Below are positions 2,587 to 18,435 of a stretch of DNA of 34,339 bases, one piece after another. Origin of the DNA: Patescibacteria group bacterium (GTDB lineage: Bacteria > Patescibacteriota > Patescibacteriia > JAGPKW01); the NCBI GenBank assembly GCA_021734125.1, contig JAIPJN010000005.1, forward strand, positions 1 through 34,339. The letters run 5' to 3'. Under the pieces are notes generated by a model that saw only the letters and a list, made by a program, of their open reading frames with translations, ran no database searches and was not told where the DNA came from. The number at the start of each line of letters is the position of its first letter. Position 1 is the first letter of the stretch. A program made the translations under genes and the position numbers.

Positions 2587-3252
2587 ATGGAGCTTTCTTT
2601 TGTTTTAAAAAAAATTAGACTAGTTCAAAAAATAACTCAAGAAGAGCTTGCTTCTTCTTTTGTTTGTGATGTTTCTGAAATACAAGCATTAGAAAATGGT
2701 TATTATAATAGATTTATTTCTAAAAAAAAGATAAGAAAAATTTTAAAATTATATTCAAAAAAATTTGATTTAAATTATAAATATTTATTGAAATTATATA
2801 AAAATAATTTTAAAGATTATATTAAAAATAGATCTTGTATTTTTTTAGAAACTGATAATTTTAATCGGAAAAATATATTTTTACCAAATGTTGCTAAATA
2901 TTTACTTATATTTATTTTTAGTTTTAGTTTTATTTTTTATTTTTCTTTACAAATTAAAGATAAATATGAACCACCATTATTGCAGGTTATAAATCCTGTC
3001 TCTGATTATAAAACAAATGATAAAAAGATACTTGTTTATGGAAAAAGTGTTCCTGAGACTTCTTTAACTGTAAACAATAAAGAAATTTATATTGATGGCG
3101 ATGGAAGTTTTTCTTTTGAAATTTCTTTACATAAAGGTGTAAATATTTTAAAATTTGTAGCATCTAAAAAAGGAAGTAAAGAAAATGTAATAATTAAAAG
3201 AGTATTTTTAGAGGAGGAAAACCAGGTTGCTAAATTAGATAAATCTAAATGA
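2587..3252 (+). CDS. RodZ-like helix-turn-helix membrane protein
   Basis: N-terminal HTH ([32 protein letters not shown]), one TM helix ([19 protein letters not shown]), C-terminal beta-rich domain. Confidence 0.7.
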
Positions 3253-3259
3253 TAAAATT

Positions 3260-4276
3260 ATGTCAGAAAAAAAAGATAGTAAAAAAGATAATATAAATAA
3301 AAAAAATGAAGCTGTTGATTTAGCTTTAGATCAAATAAAAACTAAATTTGGAAAAGGTTCAATTATGAAAATGGGTGAAGCTACTACGATGGATCTTGAT
3401 TGTGTTTCTACTGGATGTCTTTCTTTAGATATTGCTGTAGGTAAGGGGTTACCTAGAGGTAGAGTTGTTGAAGTATATGGTCCAGAATCTTCTGGTAAAA
3501 CTACAGTAGCTCAACATGTTATAGCAGAAGTTCAAAAAAATGGCGGTGTTGCTGCTTTTGTTGATGCAGAACATGCTTTGGATCCTGCTTATGCTAGAAA
3601 AATTGGAGTTAATATAGATAATTTAATAATTTCTCAGCCAGATTATGGTGAACAAGCCTTGGAGATAGTTGAAACTTTAGTTAGATCTAATGCTGTTGAT
3701 GTTATTGTTGTTGATTCAGTTGCTGCTCTTACTCCTAAAGCAGAAATAGAAGGTGATATGGGGGATTCTCATATGGGACTTCAAGCTAGGCTTATGAGCC
3801 AAGCTTTGAGAAAACTTACTGGCGTTATAAGTAGAACAAAAACTGTTTTAGTTTTTATAAATCAAATCAGACAAAAAATAGGTATTGTTTTTGGAAATCC
3901 TGAAACTACTACGGGAGGGAATGCTCTGAAATTTTACTCTTCTGTAAGAATTGAAATTAGAAGATCTGCACAAATAAAACAAGGCGATAGTATAATTGGT
4001 AATCAAGTTAAAGTAAAAATTGTAAAGAATAAGGTAGCTCCTCCTTTTAAGACTTGTGTTTTTGATATCATGTATAATGAAGGTATTTCTGTTTCTGGTG
4101 ATGTTCTTTTGCTTGGAGTTGAAAAGGGAGTTATTGATAAAAAAGGTAATTCATATAGTTATGGAGATTTGAAGTTGGGTGTAGGTAAAGAAACTGCTAA
4201 AACTTTTTTAAGAGAAAATCCTAAAACCTTACTTGAAATAAGGAATAAAATATTGGAAATAATAAACAAAGTTTAA
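3260..4276 (+). CDS. recA: Recombinase RecA
   Basis: GPESSGKTT Walker [65 protein letters not shown]. Confidence 0.98.
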
Positions 4277-4428: not shown

Positions 4429-4989
4429 ATGAAAAAAATTAAAGTCTATTTTATTTTTATACTTTCTTTTTTATTTTTAATTATTTTATATATATTTTTT
4501 ATTTCTTTTATTTTAAAAGATTTGAGTAAAACTAGTTTAAAAAAATCTAATTTTAAAGTTTTAGAAAATGAAAATTTATTAGTTTCTAATAAGGTAGTAA
4601 AAAATGAAAAGTATAATTTTGAAATTCAATCTCCTTATAAAACTGAATTTAAAAATGATTATAAATTTTTAACTTTAAAAGATGAAAATTGCGTTTTAAA
4701 TATCGTTTCATTTATTAATAATGATATTAAAAATGTTTGTGATTGGGTTGAAAAAGAATGTTTAGATTTAGAATGTTCAAATTATATTTGTGAATATTAT
4801 AAAAATGATTGGTATAAAGTTAGATATTTTGGTGATTTTATGGGTTCTTCTGATTATGAACTTGTATATAAATATAATAATTATATTTATTCAGCTAATT
4901 TAGAGTGTTTTTCTTATGAATTGGATAATTATAAAAATCCTTTATTTTCGAATTTAATTTTAAATTTTAATGTAAAAAAAGATGATTAA
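4429..4989 (+). CDS. Hypothetical single-TM membrane-anchored protein
   Basis: ORF with N-terminal hydrophobic segment; overlaps the next CDS by 8 nt. Confidence 0.6.
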   Translation: MKKIKVYFIFILSFLFLIILYIFFISFILKDLSKTSLKKSNFKVLENENLLVSNKVVKNEKYNFEIQSPYKTEFKNDYKFLTLKDENCVLNIVSFINNDIKNVCDWVEKECLDLECSNYICEYYKNDWYKVRYFGDFMGSSDYELVYKYNNYIYSANLECFSYELDNYKNPLFSNLILNFNVKKDD

Positions 4990-7702
4990 AAAAATACTAA
5001 AATTATTTATATTAATAACTATTTTGTTTTTTTATAGAAATACTTATGCAAAAATTATAGAAAATGTATTATTTAAATCTCAAGTTCCTCCTGGGTCTTG
5101 GAGTAGGACTTTAAATTGTGGCCAAACTAGCGTAATTATTGCTAATTCTTATTATAATAATTCATCTATATCTGAAGAAGATATAAAAAATATTGATATT
5201 TGGTTAAATGAAAAATTTTCTGATCCTATAAGAGATTTTAATGGATATTATACTAATACTACTAAATTAAAAACTTTATGTTCTGATTATTTTGATATGG
5301 ATTATTGCACTATAAATTCTGGGGAAAATTTATTTTCTTTTTTAAAAGAGCAAATAAATTTAGGTAATTTATCAATTTTACAAGTTAGAGTAAAAATGAA
5401 ACTTACTAAAGTTCCTCATTTTATGGTTTTTTTAGGGTATGATAATGATTTTGTTTATTTTCATGATCCTGGTCAGTCTAAAGGAAGCTATGTTAAATTT
5501 AAAATACAAGATTTTTTAGAAGTTTGGGAAAATCAAAATTTTAATTATTTATTATTTCAAAAAAATAAAAAAGAAGACAAAGAAGATGAGGTTGTAAATT
5601 TTTTAAAAATAAAAGAAGTAAATGCTAAAGAAAATAAAAATCTTGAAAATAATATTATAATTGATGAAAATAATGACGAAAATATTGAAAATAATGATGA
5701 AATTGATGATGCTATAATTGATAATGAAAATAATAATGTAGGAGCGAACAATGTTTCCCCAATTAACGAAAATGATTCAAATGCAAATAATGAAGATGAT
5801 GACGAAAATATTGAAAATGATGATGATGTAGGGGCGAACATTGTTCGCCCAATTGATGAAAATAATTTAGATAATAATGTAGGGGCGAACATTGTTCGCC
5901 CAATTGATGAACATGATTTAGATGATAATTCTGAACAAGAAGAAGAATATGGCTATATTACTAATGAAAATATATTAGTTTTAGGGCCTTATTTAAAAAT
6001 AGATTTAAATCCTCATCATGCTTCTACATCAACTCCAAAGGTTGATGTAGAGGAGAACGGTGTTCTCCCGATTGATGATGAAAATAATGATAATAACGAT
6101 GAGGATGAAAATGATGATAATAATAGTGACGAAAATACTGAAAATACCGATGATAATAATGACGAAAATACCGAAAACATCGAAAACGATGAAAATAACG
6201 ATAATGACAATAATGATGAAAACATTGAAAATAACGATAATGACAATAATGATGAAAACATTGAAAATGATGATAATAACAATAATGATGAAAATAACGA
6301 TGATGACGAAAATGATGATAATAATAATGACGAAAATGATGAAAACATTGAAAATGATGATAATAACAATAATGATGAAAATACTGAAAATACCGATGAT
6401 AATAATGACGAAAATACCGAAAATATTGTAAACGATGAAAACAATAATAATGATGAAAATAATGATGATGACGAAAATGACGAAAACGAAAATGATGGAA
6501 ATGATGAAGCTGATGAAAATGAAGAAAGTTTAGAGGTTAATAATTTATTTGGAGAATTAAATTCTGATATTACCTTAACCCCAGAAATTCCTTATACTAT
6601 AAATAGTGAATTTATTGTTCCTCAAAACGTAATATTAACAATATTACCTGGTGTTAAAATTTTATTTGGTGTAAATGGATCTTTAATTGTTGAAGGTAAA
6701 ATAGAATCTTTAGGTTCTTCTCAAAATAAAATTATTTTTACTACAAGTAAAACTGAAAATCCTGTAGAAAATTCTTGGAAATGGATAAAAATAAAGAATA
6801 GTGGTGAAGCAGTTTTTAATTGGACTATTATTGAATATGGTGGTTATGATTATTTATCAGGTGAAAAAAGAGCTCCTATAATAATTGATGGTGGTTATTT
6901 AGATGCTGATAATTTATATATTAAAAATATTGATAATGATTGTATAAAAGCAAATTTTTCTTATCTTAATATAAAAAATTCAAGTTTTAAAAATTGTAGA
7001 TATGGTTTAAATTTAACTAATTCCGAAGGTATTATAAAAGATTCTTTATTTTTAGAAAATTTTAATGGTTTTGTAATAAATAATTCTTTTTCTGATTTAA
7101 TTTTAAAAAATAATTCTATAAATAATTCTTTAGATTATTCTATAAAATTAATAAATTCTGTTCCTATGATTATTGATATGAATTATTCAGATAATAAATA
7201 TGATGAAATATTTTTAGATTTAAATTTAGATTTTGGAGATTATGTTTTAAGTAAAGGTATTTATTATGTTTTAAAAGTTAATTTATCAGAAAATACTAAT
7301 TTTACAATATCTCCTGGATGTGTTTTTAAGTCTTATAATTCTGGTTATTTTTCAGGAAGTTGGTATGTTAGATCAAATATTTTTAATGCTGTAGGAATGG
7401 AAAATTCTCCTATTATTTTTGATTCTTATTATGAAAATCCAGAACTTAATCAAAGGTGGGGAAAAATAAATTTTTATAATAATAATTTTTTAAATGCTGA
7501 AAATGTAATAATAAAAAATGGTGGTAGAAATTATTTTTTAGGAGAAAAAGGGTTTCCTATTTATTTAGAAAATGTAAAAAATATAAATGCTTTAAATATT
7601 TATTTATATAATAATTTTGAAAATGATTATTTTTATAAAAATAATTTAGAGGAATATACTTATAATCTAAATAATATTTATATAAATGATGAGGAAATAT
7701 AA
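4982..7702 (+). CDS. Secreted/surface multidomain protein: C39-like cysteine peptidase domain, long D/N/E-rich linker, C-terminal parallel beta-helix-like region
   Basis: Signal-like N-terminus; WSRTLNCGQTSVIIAN (Cys nucleophile context) and KVPHFMVFLGYDNDFVYFHDPGQSKG (His...Asp) resemble peptidase_C39_2; low-complexity region about codons 190-520; then repetitive NxxIxxS/xIxN pattern typical of beta-helices. Confidence 0.7.
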   Translation: MIKKILKLFILITILFFYRNTYAKIIENVLFKSQVPPGSWSRTLNCGQTSVIIANSYYNNSSISEEDIKNIDIWLNEKFSDPIRDFNGYYTNTTKLKTLCSDYFDMDYCTINSGENLFSFLKEQINLGNLSILQVRVKMKLTKVPHFMVFLGYDNDFVYFHDPGQSKGSYVKFKIQDFLEVWENQNFNYLLFQKNKKEDKEDEVVNFLKIKEVNAKENKNLENNIIIDENNDENIENNDEIDDAIIDNENNNVGANNVSPINENDSNANNEDDDENIENDDDVGANIVRPIDENNLDNNVGANIVRPIDEHDLDDNSEQEEEYGYITNENILVLGPYLKIDLNPHHASTSTPKVDVEENGVLPIDDENNDNNDEDENDDNNSDENTENTDDNNDENTENIENDENNDNDNNDENIENNDNDNNDENIENDDNNNNDENNDDDENDDNNNDENDENIENDDNNNNDENTENTDDNNDENTENIVNDENNNNDENNDDDENDENENDGNDEADENEESLEVNNLFGELNSDITLTPEIPYTINSEFIVPQNVILTILPGVKILFGVNGSLIVEGKIESLGSSQNKIIFTTSKTENPVENSWKWIKIKNSGEAVFNWTIIEYGGYDYLSGEKRAPIIIDGGYLDADNLYIKNIDNDCIKANFSYLNIKNSSFKNCRYGLNLTNSEGIIKDSLFLENFNGFVINNSFSDLILKNNSINNSLDYSIKLINSVPMIIDMNYSDNKYDEIFLDLNLDFGDYVLSKGIYYVLKVNLSENTNFTISPGCVFKSYNSGYFSGSWYVRSNIFNAVGMENSPIIFDSYYENPELNQRWGKINFYNNNFLNAENVIIKNGGRNYFLGEKGFPIYLENVKNINALNIYLYNNFENDYFYKNNLEEYTYNLNNIYINDEEI
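5738..5760 (+). repeat. Degenerate GTAG-headed palindrome (family A)
   Basis: gtaggagcgaacaatgtttcccc; diverged from the copies at 5828 and 5879. Confidence 0.65.
5828..5850 (+). repeat. GTAG-headed palindrome, family A, in frame in CDS
   Basis: GTAG-GGGCGAAC-ATT-GTTCGCCC, perfect 8-bp inverted repeat; encodes VGANIVRP. Confidence 0.85.
5879..5901 (+). repeat. GTAG-headed palindrome, family A, second perfect copy
   Basis: Identical 23-mer gtaggggcgaacattgttcgccc plus shared downstream aattgatga. Confidence 0.85.
6047..6069 (+). repeat. GTAG-headed palindrome, variant stem
   Basis: GTAG-A-GGAGAAC-GGT-GTTCTCC-C, 7-bp perfect inverted repeat followed by gattgatga as in the other copies. Confidence 0.8.
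6070..6530 (+). repeat. Codon-phased Asp/Asn/Glu low-complexity tract with internal tandem repeats
   Basis: Dense GAY/AAY/GAA codons; includes a 36-nt tandem duplication (gaaaataacgataatgacaataatgatgaaaacatt at 6191 and 6227). Confidence 0.85.
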
Positions 7703-10864: not shown

Positions 10865-12463
10865 ATGGATAAAATTTTAGAGATAATTTTATCTCCTGAT
10901 TCTGAAAAATTTAGAGGTGATCTTTTTGAGAGATATGAAATTTCTGATGATGATATTTTTATTATAAATTCTAATTTTAAGAAATTTTTTTCTGGTGAAA
11001 TTAAATTTTTAGATTTTTTAAAAGAGTGTTCCGATCTTAATATAAAATTAATAGAAGAATATTTAGATTTTCATTTAAAATTAATAGAAGAGTATTTAGA
11101 TAGTGATTATAATACTTTGATGAAAGATTTTTCTAATTTTATTATTTCAAAAAATAATATAAATGGTAGTGATCAGCCATTGTTAAATAAAAACGATGAT
11201 GTTTTGAATAAAACAGGTGAAAAAAATAAAAAAAATAAAAATGATAAAAAAGGTAGTGGTCAGAGATCTCTGACCAATAAAGAAAATATAGGTAGTGACC
11301 AACGATCGTTGGTCAATACAAATTCATATAAACATGGTGATATAAAAAATATTTTGGAAGATGATAAAAATAAACGTAGTGATCAGCCATTGTTAAATAA
11401 AAACGATGATGTTTTGAATAAAACAGGTGAAAAAAATAAAAATGATAAAAAAGGTAGTGGTCAGAGATCTCTGACCAATAAAGATGATAAAACAGAAAAA
11501 TATGCTGAAGAAATTAGAAAAATTATAAAAGAAGAAATAAATCAAGATTTTTTATTAGGTGCAAAAAATAAAAATAAGGAATTAACTGATGGCGTTTTTA
11601 ATCCTTTTGATAATCCTTCTTTAATTGTTGATGAAGTTATTAATATTATAGGACTTAGGTTTAAAAATGAAAAAAATAGAGATAAATTTTATTCTATATT
11701 AATAAAATATTTGAAAAATATTAGGAATAAACATCAGTCTTATGAAATTTTAGTAGATGATAAAATAGGTTTATCTGTTTCTAAAATTGCTGCTGAAAAA
11801 ATATTGAATCTTACCGAAAAAATAAAAAAACAAAAAGAGAACAATCTACTTGAATATAAAAAAAGTAAATTAATAAAAAAAGAAAAAAAAGATTCAGTAA
11901 ATAACATATTAAATGTAAAATCTGATAATTCTATAGAAAATAAAAAAAGCAGTGGTCAGTCACAGCTTGTTAATAAAAAAAATAAAGATTTAACTGGATT
12001 AAAAACAGAAGAAGATATTTTTCACTTTTATGATGGAAATATTGAAGAGTTATATATGAAAAGAGAAAAAGAAAGATCTAAGGAAATAGATATGGATATG
12101 GATATTGGCGGTGATATTCATAGAGATTTTTTATCCAATAGATTAGTTGGCCCTGTTGAAGAATTAGCTTATTTTACAATTATTGATTTTAGAAATTTAG
12201 GAGAAGATTTAGATGAAAGAATAAAAAAATTAAAACAGAAAATTAATGTTTTGGAAGATTATGGTTTGAATAAAAAAATCCTTGGAATAAAAGCTTGGCT
12301 TAATTCAGAAGTTTCAGAAGTTTATAAAGCTATTTTAAATGAAAGTATTGAATTTGGTAGCATAGAAAATGCTGTTTTAAAAAGAAAAGAAAAGGGTCGT
12401 TTATATTTGACAGAAGAAGAAATAAATAAAATAGCAGAACTTAATAGGGAATTTAGAATTTAA
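10865..12463 (+). CDS. Hypothetical disordered/coiled protein of the T4SS-like cluster
   Basis: Long ORF between VirB6-like and PrgI-like genes; charged, carries six palindrome-derived peptides (GSGQRSLTNK, GSDQRSLVN, GSDQPLLNK etc.). Confidence 0.7.
   Translation: MDKILEIILSPDSEKFRGDLFERYEISDDDIFIINSNFKKFFSGEIKFLDFLKECSDLNIKLIEEYLDFHLKLIEEYLDSDYNTLMKDFSNFIISKNNINGSDQPLLNKNDDVLNKTGEKNKKNKNDKKGSGQRSLTNKENIGSDQRSLVNTNSYKHGDIKNILEDDKNKRSDQPLLNKNDDVLNKTGEKNKNDKKGSGQRSLTNKDDKTEKYAEEIRKIIKEEINQDFLLGAKNKNKELTDGVFNPFDNPSLIVDEVINIIGLRFKNEKNRDKFYSILIKYLKNIRNKHQSYEILVDDKIGLSVSKIAAEKILNLTEKIKKQKENNLLEYKKSKLIKKEKKDSVNNILNVKSDNSIENKKSSGQSQLVNKKNKDLTGLKTEEDIFHFYDGNIEELYMKREKERSKEIDMDMDIGGDIHRDFLSNRLVGPVEELAYFTIIDFRNLGEDLDERIKKLKQKINVLEDYGLNKKILGIKAWLNSEVSEVYKAILNESIEFGSIENAVLKRKEKGRLYLTEEEINKIAELNREFRI
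11166..11188 (+). repeat. Degenerate GTAG-headed palindrome (family B)
   Basis: gtagtgatcagccattgttaaat; aligns to GTAGTGACCAACGATCGTTGGTC with substitutions; encodes GSDQPLLN. Confidence 0.6.
11253..11275 (+). repeat. GTAG-headed palindrome, family C
   Basis: GTAG-T-GGTCAGAGATCTCTGACC, perfect 18-nt palindrome; encodes GSGQRSLT. Confidence 0.85.
11292..11314 (+). repeat. GTAG-headed palindrome, family B
   Basis: GTAG-T-GACCAACGATCGTTGGTC, perfect 18-nt palindrome; encodes GSDQRSLV. Confidence 0.85.
11376..11398 (+). repeat. Degenerate GTAG-headed palindrome (family B), duplicated copy
   Basis: Same 23-mer as 11166-11188, 210 nt downstream. Confidence 0.6.
11454..11476 (+). repeat. GTAG-headed palindrome, family C, second copy
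   Basis: Same 23-mer as 11253-11275. Confidence 0.85.
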
Positions 12464-18155: not shown

Positions 18156-18214
18156 TATATAAAACACTTTACAAAGCTTTTATTAAAGGTTAGAATATTT
18201 TATATAGTTTATAT

Positions 18215-18302
18215 GCCGAGGTGGTGGAATTGGTAGACACGCAAGACTTAAAATCTTGTTTCATTTTATGAAGTGCGGGTTCAAGTCCCGCCCTCGGCAC
18301 CA
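18215..18302 (+). tRNA. tRNA-Leu (anticodon TAA), CCA encoded
   Basis: gccgagg...cctcggc acceptor, class II long variable arm, anticodon loop cttaaaa, ggttcaagtccc T arm. Confidence 0.95.
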
Positions 18303-18316
18303 ATATTAAAGCAGTG

Positions 18317-18341
18317 GGAACGCGCCTTGGCGCGTTCCTAC
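18317..18341 (-). repeat. GTAG-headed palindrome on minus strand; possible tRNA-Leu terminator on plus strand
   Basis: Minus strand GTAGGAACGCGCCAAGGCGCGTTCC; plus strand ggaacgcgcc-tt-ggcgcgttcc (10-bp perfect stem) followed by tacaattttttt. Confidence 0.85.
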
Positions 18342-18435
18342 AATTTTTTTAATAAATTTATTTCAATTTTATTTTATTTTAATTTTATTTTAATTTTTAT
18401 ATATCATTATTAAAGTGTTTTTAATTTAAAAAATA

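What the first reader, a model, noticed from the sequence alone, without database searches (positions are those of the whole stretch)
5738..6069. Palindromes inserted in frame into the linker of a secreted peptidase/beta-helix protein
Four GTAG palindromes are translated in the same frame as VGANNVSPI, VGANIVRPI, VGANIVRPI and VEENGVLPI, each followed by D/N-E-N-rich sequence. The two exact copies share a flanking aattgatga, so they may also have spread by tandem duplication. This parallels the Rickettsia palindromic elements (RPEs), which insert in frame in protein genes, but in an unrelated genome and in a disordered, extracellular linker.
Basis: partly seen in the sequence, partly recalled or inferred. 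Interest (0 to 1): 0.7.

Follow-up and report, generated by a model that had tools for sequence, protein, structure and literature searches.

The report
GTAG REP repeats inside a gene
Short mobile-looking hairpin repeats (REP elements), scattered through this tiny bacterium's genome together with the transposase that usually moves them, have landed inside a gene's floppy linker without breaking the reading frame; this is a new example of a known phenomenon, with an unusually clear reason why the frame survives.

Summary
Four GTAG-headed elements lie in one frame of the 906-aa ORF 4982-7702: two perfect hairpins, one covarying variant and one decayed copy (5738). The two exact copies are a 51-bp tandem duplication (48/51), so there are about three insertion events, not four.

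They belong to a REP family dispersed in this genome: 22 places within 3 mismatches, 19 of 24 catalogued copies outside long ORFs, several flanking a REP-associated tyrosine transposase (RAYT). Among 193 genomes of the class, only one other has even a single site. Orthologues in the two same-family genomes keep the peptidase-linker-beta-helix layout but lack the peptides.

Frame: T precedes GTAG in all 24 copies, TNNT in 21. In a linker of AAT/GAT codons such sites end at codon position 3 (94/105), so GTA starts a codon; one other phase puts TAG in frame. No peptide selection is needed.

Other palindrome families also occur in frame here (UvrC, TruB, DnaX, a conjugation-like ATPase, a second RAYT). 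UvrC shows an occupied site that is empty in ten orthologues. Intragenic GTAG REPs are known (Di Nocera 2013); RPE-4/RPE-6 are CGTC-tagged, so these are not RPEs. New member of a known kind.

The parts
4982..7702 (+). host gene: 906-aa protein with an N-terminal hydrophobic segment, a C39-like peptidase domain (C46, H146, D162 invariant in 3 orthologues), an acidic/Asn linker and a beta-helix
   Evidence: (DUF3335 Peptidase_C39-like, 18.5 bits, below cut-off)
5567..6535 (+). linker (aa 196-518), predicted disordered, no secondary structure apart from one short low-confidence helix near its start; made mostly of AAT, GAT and GAA codons
   Evidence: pLDDT below 50 throughout (alignment only 3 deep); codon counts
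5738..5760 (+). REP family A copy 1, decayed, reads VGANNVS(P)
5828..5850 (+). REP family A copy 2, perfect hairpin, reads VGANIVR(P)
5879..5901 (+). REP family A copy 3, a tandem duplicate of copy 2
5828..5929 (+). two units of a 51-bp tandem duplication (48/51 identical), each containing one REP
6047..6069 (+). REP family A copy 4, covarying variant GTAGAGGAGAAC-GGT-GTTCTCCC, reads VEENGVL(P)
11252..11319 (+). related GTAG palindromes of family B, in frame in ORF 10865-12463, reading GSGQRSLTN and GSDQRSLVN
11453..11479 (+). further family B palindrome, GSGQRSLTN, in a duplicated segment of the same ORF
18314..18341 (.). family C palindrome GT[AG]GGAACGCGCC-NN-GGCGCGTTCC in the intergenic gap 18156-18435

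Best explanation
The palindromes are GTAG-tagged REP elements of a family (A) that has multiplied in this one lineage, most likely moved as single-stranded DNA by its own TnpA_REP/RAYT enzyme, whose gene on contig C10 is flanked by copies. Insertions into structured coding sequence were lost; those in disordered linkers and protein tails survived. Elements join 3' of a T, usually TNNT. In a linker of AAT/GAT codons almost every such site ends a codon, so the element is read GTA-GGG-GCG...; one of the other phases would put TAG in frame. After insertion, one copy was doubled by slippage or recombination (51 bp) and one decayed. SHOWN: elements, dispersal, lineage restriction, RAYT association, 5' flank preference, phase arithmetic, tandem duplication, absence from orthologues, and an occupied/empty site for family B in uvrC. 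INFERRED: that the C10 RAYT is what moves them, that TNNT is a target rather than part of the element, and that the protein tolerates the peptides.
For: Family A: 22 places within 3 mismatches, most outside long ORFs; coding fraction of sampled DNA is about 87%, so coding copies are strongly under-represented. RAYT: PF01797 over cut-off, NF047646 REP_Tyr_transpos E=1e-16, NHIH and YIIENP motifs; family A copies at C10:2734, 2927, 3654 and 3849 surround the gene at 2957-3460. Related RAYTs elsewhere in the phylum also have GTAG hairpins beside them. Lineage restriction: 192 other class genomes give one 3-mismatch site in one genome, and none in the two same-family genomes. Peptides absent from both same-family orthologues. 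DNA origin: CGC occurs 0 times and GCG 7 times in about 9,700 other window codons. Phase: T at -1 in 24/24; in 19 intergenic copies T at -1 19/19 (p=1e-8) and T at -4 16/19 (p=5e-5); linker TNNT ends at codon position 3 in 94/105. uvrC: SVQRSLD, inside GTAGTGTCCAAAGATCTTTGGACA, is a 7-aa insertion absent from 10 orthologues.
Against: No empty site could be aligned in the host gene itself, because the linker is not homologous position by position. The RAYT scores below NCBIfam's equivalog cut-off (61 of 80 bits). The coding copies share a 3' tail ([AG]ATT[AG]A) and, with one exception, a GAAC/GTTC stem not seen in intergenic copies, so they may not be independent insertions of the RAYT-flanking subtype. 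The assembly is about 70% complete.
Confidence: 0.85

Rival explanations
1. The peptides VGAN-x-V-x-PI-[DN]E are a selected short motif (for example a binding or processing signal) and the DNA palindrome is incidental or a relic.
For: All coding copies are followed by ATT (PI) although ATT is only 4-5% of linker codons, and the tail [AG]ATT[AG]A is absent from 19 intergenic copies. The R to S change occurs with two different serine codons (TCC at 5738, AGC in C30).
Against: Same-family orthologues lack the motif. Codons are those of the DNA element and nearly unused otherwise (CGC 0, GCG 7). Copy 6047 (VEENGVLPI) keeps the stem by covariation but not the peptide. The same peptide sits in an unrelated ATPase tail. 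Many intergenic copies have no peptide at all.
Confidence: 0.08
2. The coding copies are a separate coding-resident sub-lineage: one REP entered a linker once and spread to other linker sites and one other gene by recombination or template switching between D/N-rich repeats, carrying its AATT tail, without RAYT.
For: Shared GAAC/GTTC stem and shared 3' tail in the window gene and the C30 gene; a proven 51-bp tandem duplication.
Against: 5' flanks follow the same TNNT rule as the intergenic copies. Other families also show in-frame copies in genes without such linkers (uvrC). An intergenic copy with a partly GAAC stem exists (C22:6673).
Confidence: 0.2
3. Chance palindromes within low-complexity D/N/E-coding DNA.
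For: The linker is repetitive, and one of the four copies is no longer a palindrome.
Against: GC-rich 19-bp hairpins in 24%-GC DNA; exact copies genome-wide against zero reversed-pattern controls; shuffles give no such stems.
Confidence: 0.01

Closest known systems
Intragenic GTAG-tagged REPs (Di Nocera et al. 2013, PMC3733652)
   Same: GTAG tag, 6-13 bp stem, short loop, dispersed, mostly intergenic, some in frame inside genes, RAYT genes flanked by copies; that paper also lists REP-bearing repair genes and truB, and suggests flexible linkers tolerate them.
   Different: Found here in a Patescibacteria genome of 24% GC; several in one linker; frame preservation explained by the TNNT flank and AAT/GAT codons; the paper describes no such phase rule in the sections read.
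REPtron / TnpA_REP systems (Corneloup et al. 2021, PMC8266576; HuH survey PMC6006769)
   Same: RAYT gene flanked by GTAG hairpins; HUH motif NHIH or DHIH, YIxxNP motif; REP insertion inside a RAYT gene, reported as typical of subclass 2.4.
   Different: Studied enzymes cut at CT or CA dinucleotides; here the 5' flank is T-rich. Subclass assignment rests on motifs only.
Rickettsia palindromic elements RPE-4/RPE-6 and RPE-1
   Same: Palindromic repeats inserted in frame in unrelated protein genes of a reduced, AT-rich genome.
   Different: RPE-4/RPE-6 carry a CGTC tag and that class lacks a known dedicated transposase (PMC3733652); RPE-1 is longer. Here the tag is GTAG and a RAYT is present.
REPIN (paired inverted REPs, PMC3116915)
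   Same: REP units moved by a RAYT.
   Different: Units in this linker are single and direct, not inverted pairs.

Membership tests
GTAG-tagged REP superfamily | GTAG (or GTRG) tetranucleotide directly 5' of the palindrome | tested here: met
   All 24 family A copies begin GTAG.
GTAG-tagged REP superfamily | short stem-loop, stem 6-13 bp, short loop | tested here: met
   8-bp stem and 3-nt loop in 5828/5879; 7-bp in 6047; copy 5738 itself no longer folds.
GTAG-tagged REP superfamily | multi-copy, dispersed, mostly intergenic | tested here: met
   22 places on at least 11 contigs; 19 of 24 not in long ORFs.
GTAG-tagged REP superfamily | associated with a RAYT gene flanked by the same repeat | tested here: met
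   C10:2957-3460 with family A copies on both sides.
GTAG-tagged REP superfamily | mobility catalysed by the cognate TnpA_REP | not testable with these tools
   Needs biochemistry; only the association is shown.
RAYT (TnpA_REP), for the C10 gene | Y1_Tnp domain with HUH motif and catalytic-Tyr YIxxNP motif | tested here: met
   PF01797 31.5 bits against a cut-off of 23; NHIH and YIIENP.
RAYT (TnpA_REP), for the C10 gene | NCBIfam NF047646 equivalog cut-off (80 bits) | tested here: not met
   61 bits, E=1e-16: a relative, not within the curated equivalog. The C10 gene is called RAYT-like on association and motifs.
Rickettsia RPE-4/RPE-6 (CGTC REPs) | CGTC terminal tetranucleotide | tested here: not met
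   Tag is GTAG in all copies. Not a member.
REPIN | two REPs in inverted orientation close together forming one mobile unit | tested here: not met
   In the linker all copies are direct and 51-168 bp apart; around the RAYT there are inverted neighbours, so the genome as a whole is open on this.

The most novel reading that the evidence does not exclude
A REP sub-lineage has become resident in coding DNA: copies with the GAAC/GTTC stem and an [AG]ATT[AG]A tail are found only inside reading frames, spread from linker to linker, and deliver a ready-made in-frame peptide module (VGANxVxPI[DN]E) because their target rule matches AAT/GAT codon ends. REPs would then be a steady source of new linker peptide in small AT-rich genomes.
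Probability: 0.15. Interest if true: 0.65.

Novelty: new member of a known kind. Interest (0 to 1): 0.4.

Why it matters
It extends in-frame REP insertion to the Patescibacteria, in a genome where at least three palindrome families enter genes, and gives a simple testable rule (T/TNNT flank against AAT/GAT codons) for why insertions in disordered acidic linkers keep the frame. It makes the old question of whether such peptides are tolerated noise or raw material for proteins open to a strain-level test.

Tried and rejected
Chance palindromes: rejected. RPE membership: rejected on the tag. Four independent insertions: rejected, two are a tandem duplication. Conserved functional motif across relatives: not seen. 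A fourth palindrome type behind VGTGQAPCPI in C30 was sought as a dispersed family (GTAGGGACAGG...): no copies. First genome-contig scan with the peptidase domain found no relatives, so no named close strain was available. PDB sequence search with the RAYT found nothing at E 0.01. Papers on REPs or RAYTs in Patescibacteria: none found in the held library. The 3-sequence structure model is poor in the peptidase domain and was used only for linker disorder and the beta-helix fold class.

Full report
Observation. Four GTAG-headed elements at 5738, 5828, 5879 and 6047 lie in frame 0 of ORF 4982-7702 (906 aa) and read VGANNVSPI, VGANIVRPI, VGANIVRPI and VEENGVLPI. As single-stranded DNA, 5828 and 5879 fold at -9.2 kcal/mol with no shuffle as good; 6047 folds at -5.5 with a C-G pair replaced by A-T; 5738 no longer folds. 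The two exact copies are units of a 51-bp tandem duplication, 48/51 identical, so about three insertion events are needed.

Organism. RecA is nearest to Magasanikbacteria and Uhrbacteria (75% and 73%); with a 663-kb, 24%-GC assembly this is a Patescibacteria genome, probably class ABY1 (class assignment is inference from those names).

Host protein. An N-terminal hydrophobic helix, a C39-like peptidase domain (DUF3335, below cut-off; C46, H146 and D162 invariant in three orthologues), a linker of aa 196-518 with pLDDT below 50, then a beta-strand-rich domain at high confidence whose structural neighbours are right-handed beta-helices (weak E-values, fold class only). Export is inferred from the N-terminus.

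A dispersed REP family. Within 3 mismatches the assembly holds 22 places of GTAGGGGCG[CA]AC-NNN-GT[GT]CGCCC, none for the reversed control pattern. Most lie outside long ORFs, although about 87% of sampled DNA is coding. Among 193 class genomes only one other has even a single 3-mismatch site, and the two same-family genomes have none.

Transposase. Contig C10 carries a 167-aa Y1_Tnp protein that matches the REP-associated tyrosine transposase model at E=1e-16, below its equivalog cut-off. It is flanked by family A copies at 2734, 2927, 3654 and 3849. Its nearest relatives are other Patescibacteria RAYTs, 42-51% identical among the top matches, several with their own GTAG hairpins. A second RAYT on C28 (2719-3219, 46% identical) has a different palindrome, GGACGCACCATGGTGCGTCC, both beside its 5' end and in frame inside the gene; REP insertions inside tnpA_REP genes are reported as typical of subclass 2.4 (PMC6006769).

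Why the frame is kept. T precedes GTAG in 24 of 24 copies. In the 19 intergenic copies alone T is at -1 in 19 (p=1e-8) and at -4 in 16 (p=5e-5). In the linker, TNNT ends at codon position 3 in 94 of 105 cases, position 2 in 9 (this gives an in-frame TAG) and position 1 in 2. So about 98% of stop-free insertions at such sites read GTA GGG GCG, as seen. The T could instead be part of a 24-nt element; either way the rule is derived from intergenic copies and predicts the coding ones. A DNA origin is also shown by codons: CGC 0 and GCG 7 among about 9,700 other window codons.

Insertion evidence. Orthologues in the two same-family genomes have the same domain layout but different linkers and none of the peptides. 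Because linkers do not align, the exact empty site is not shown here. It is shown in uvrC: GTAGTGTCCAAAGATCTTTGGACA at C24:4461-4484 underlies a 7-aa insertion (SVQRSLD) absent from 10 orthologues. A second uvrC loop, VGTGENLSPVQRSL, lies where relatives vary in length, so it is only suggestive.

Other families. Family B (GTAGTGACCAAC-[CGA]AT[CGT]-GTTGGTCA, about a dozen places) and family C (GT[AG]GGAACGCGCCNNGGCGCGTTCC, 84 strand hits, many counted on both strands) are also dispersed. In-frame copies are in window ORF 10865-12463, a TrwB/TraG-like ATPase with three element types, TruB's N-terminal extension, and the DnaX tail.

Residual puzzle. The coding family A copies share the tail [AG]ATT[AG]A and GAAC/GTTC-type stems; no intergenic copy has this tail. 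ATT is only 4-5% of linker codons, so four independent cases by chance is about 5e-6. A coding-resident sub-lineage or selection on PI[DN]E remains possible.

Known work. Di Nocera et al. (PMC3733652) described GTAG REPs inside genes, including repair genes and truB, and proposed tolerance in flexible linkers. Rickettsia RPE-4 and RPE-6 are CGTC-tagged. The finding is therefore a new member of a known kind, in a phylum where I found no report (held library only).

Noticed in passing
window 10865-12463: ORF with repeated in-frame family B palindromes (GSGQRSLTN, GSDQRSLVN) and relics GSDQPLLN/SSGQSQLVN whose differences from a family B element read in the same frame are partly synonymous; includes a segmental duplication (11165 and 11375 onwards).
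   Followed up: partly
L040:4461-4484 and 3850-3890 (G000:C24): uvrC carries in-frame palindromes; the 7-aa SVQRSLD insertion is absent from 10 orthologues.
   Followed up: yes
L207:8481-8660 (G000:C13): TruB has an extension of about 60 aa at its N-terminus built from family B palindromes (GSGQRSLTKRSL...); the true start may lie downstream.
   Followed up: partly
L018:3-1223 (G000:C10): DnaX-like C-terminal tail contains an in-frame GGACGCACCATGGTGCGTCC palindrome (MGTHHGASV).
   Followed up: partly
L274:2719-3267 (G000:C28): Second RAYT gene with a palindrome inserted in frame between its HUH and Tyr motifs, and the same palindrome just upstream of its start.
   Followed up: partly
L039:9341-11500 (G000:C30): TrwB/TraG-like ATPase whose C-terminal tail holds VGANSVSPI, VGTRHGAFQHGA and VGTGQAPCPI; the last has no dispersed family in this assembly.
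   Followed up: partly
window 5828-5929 and C30:23941-23967: Coding family A copies share a 3' tail [AG]ATT[AG]A not found beside any intergenic copy.
   Followed up: partly
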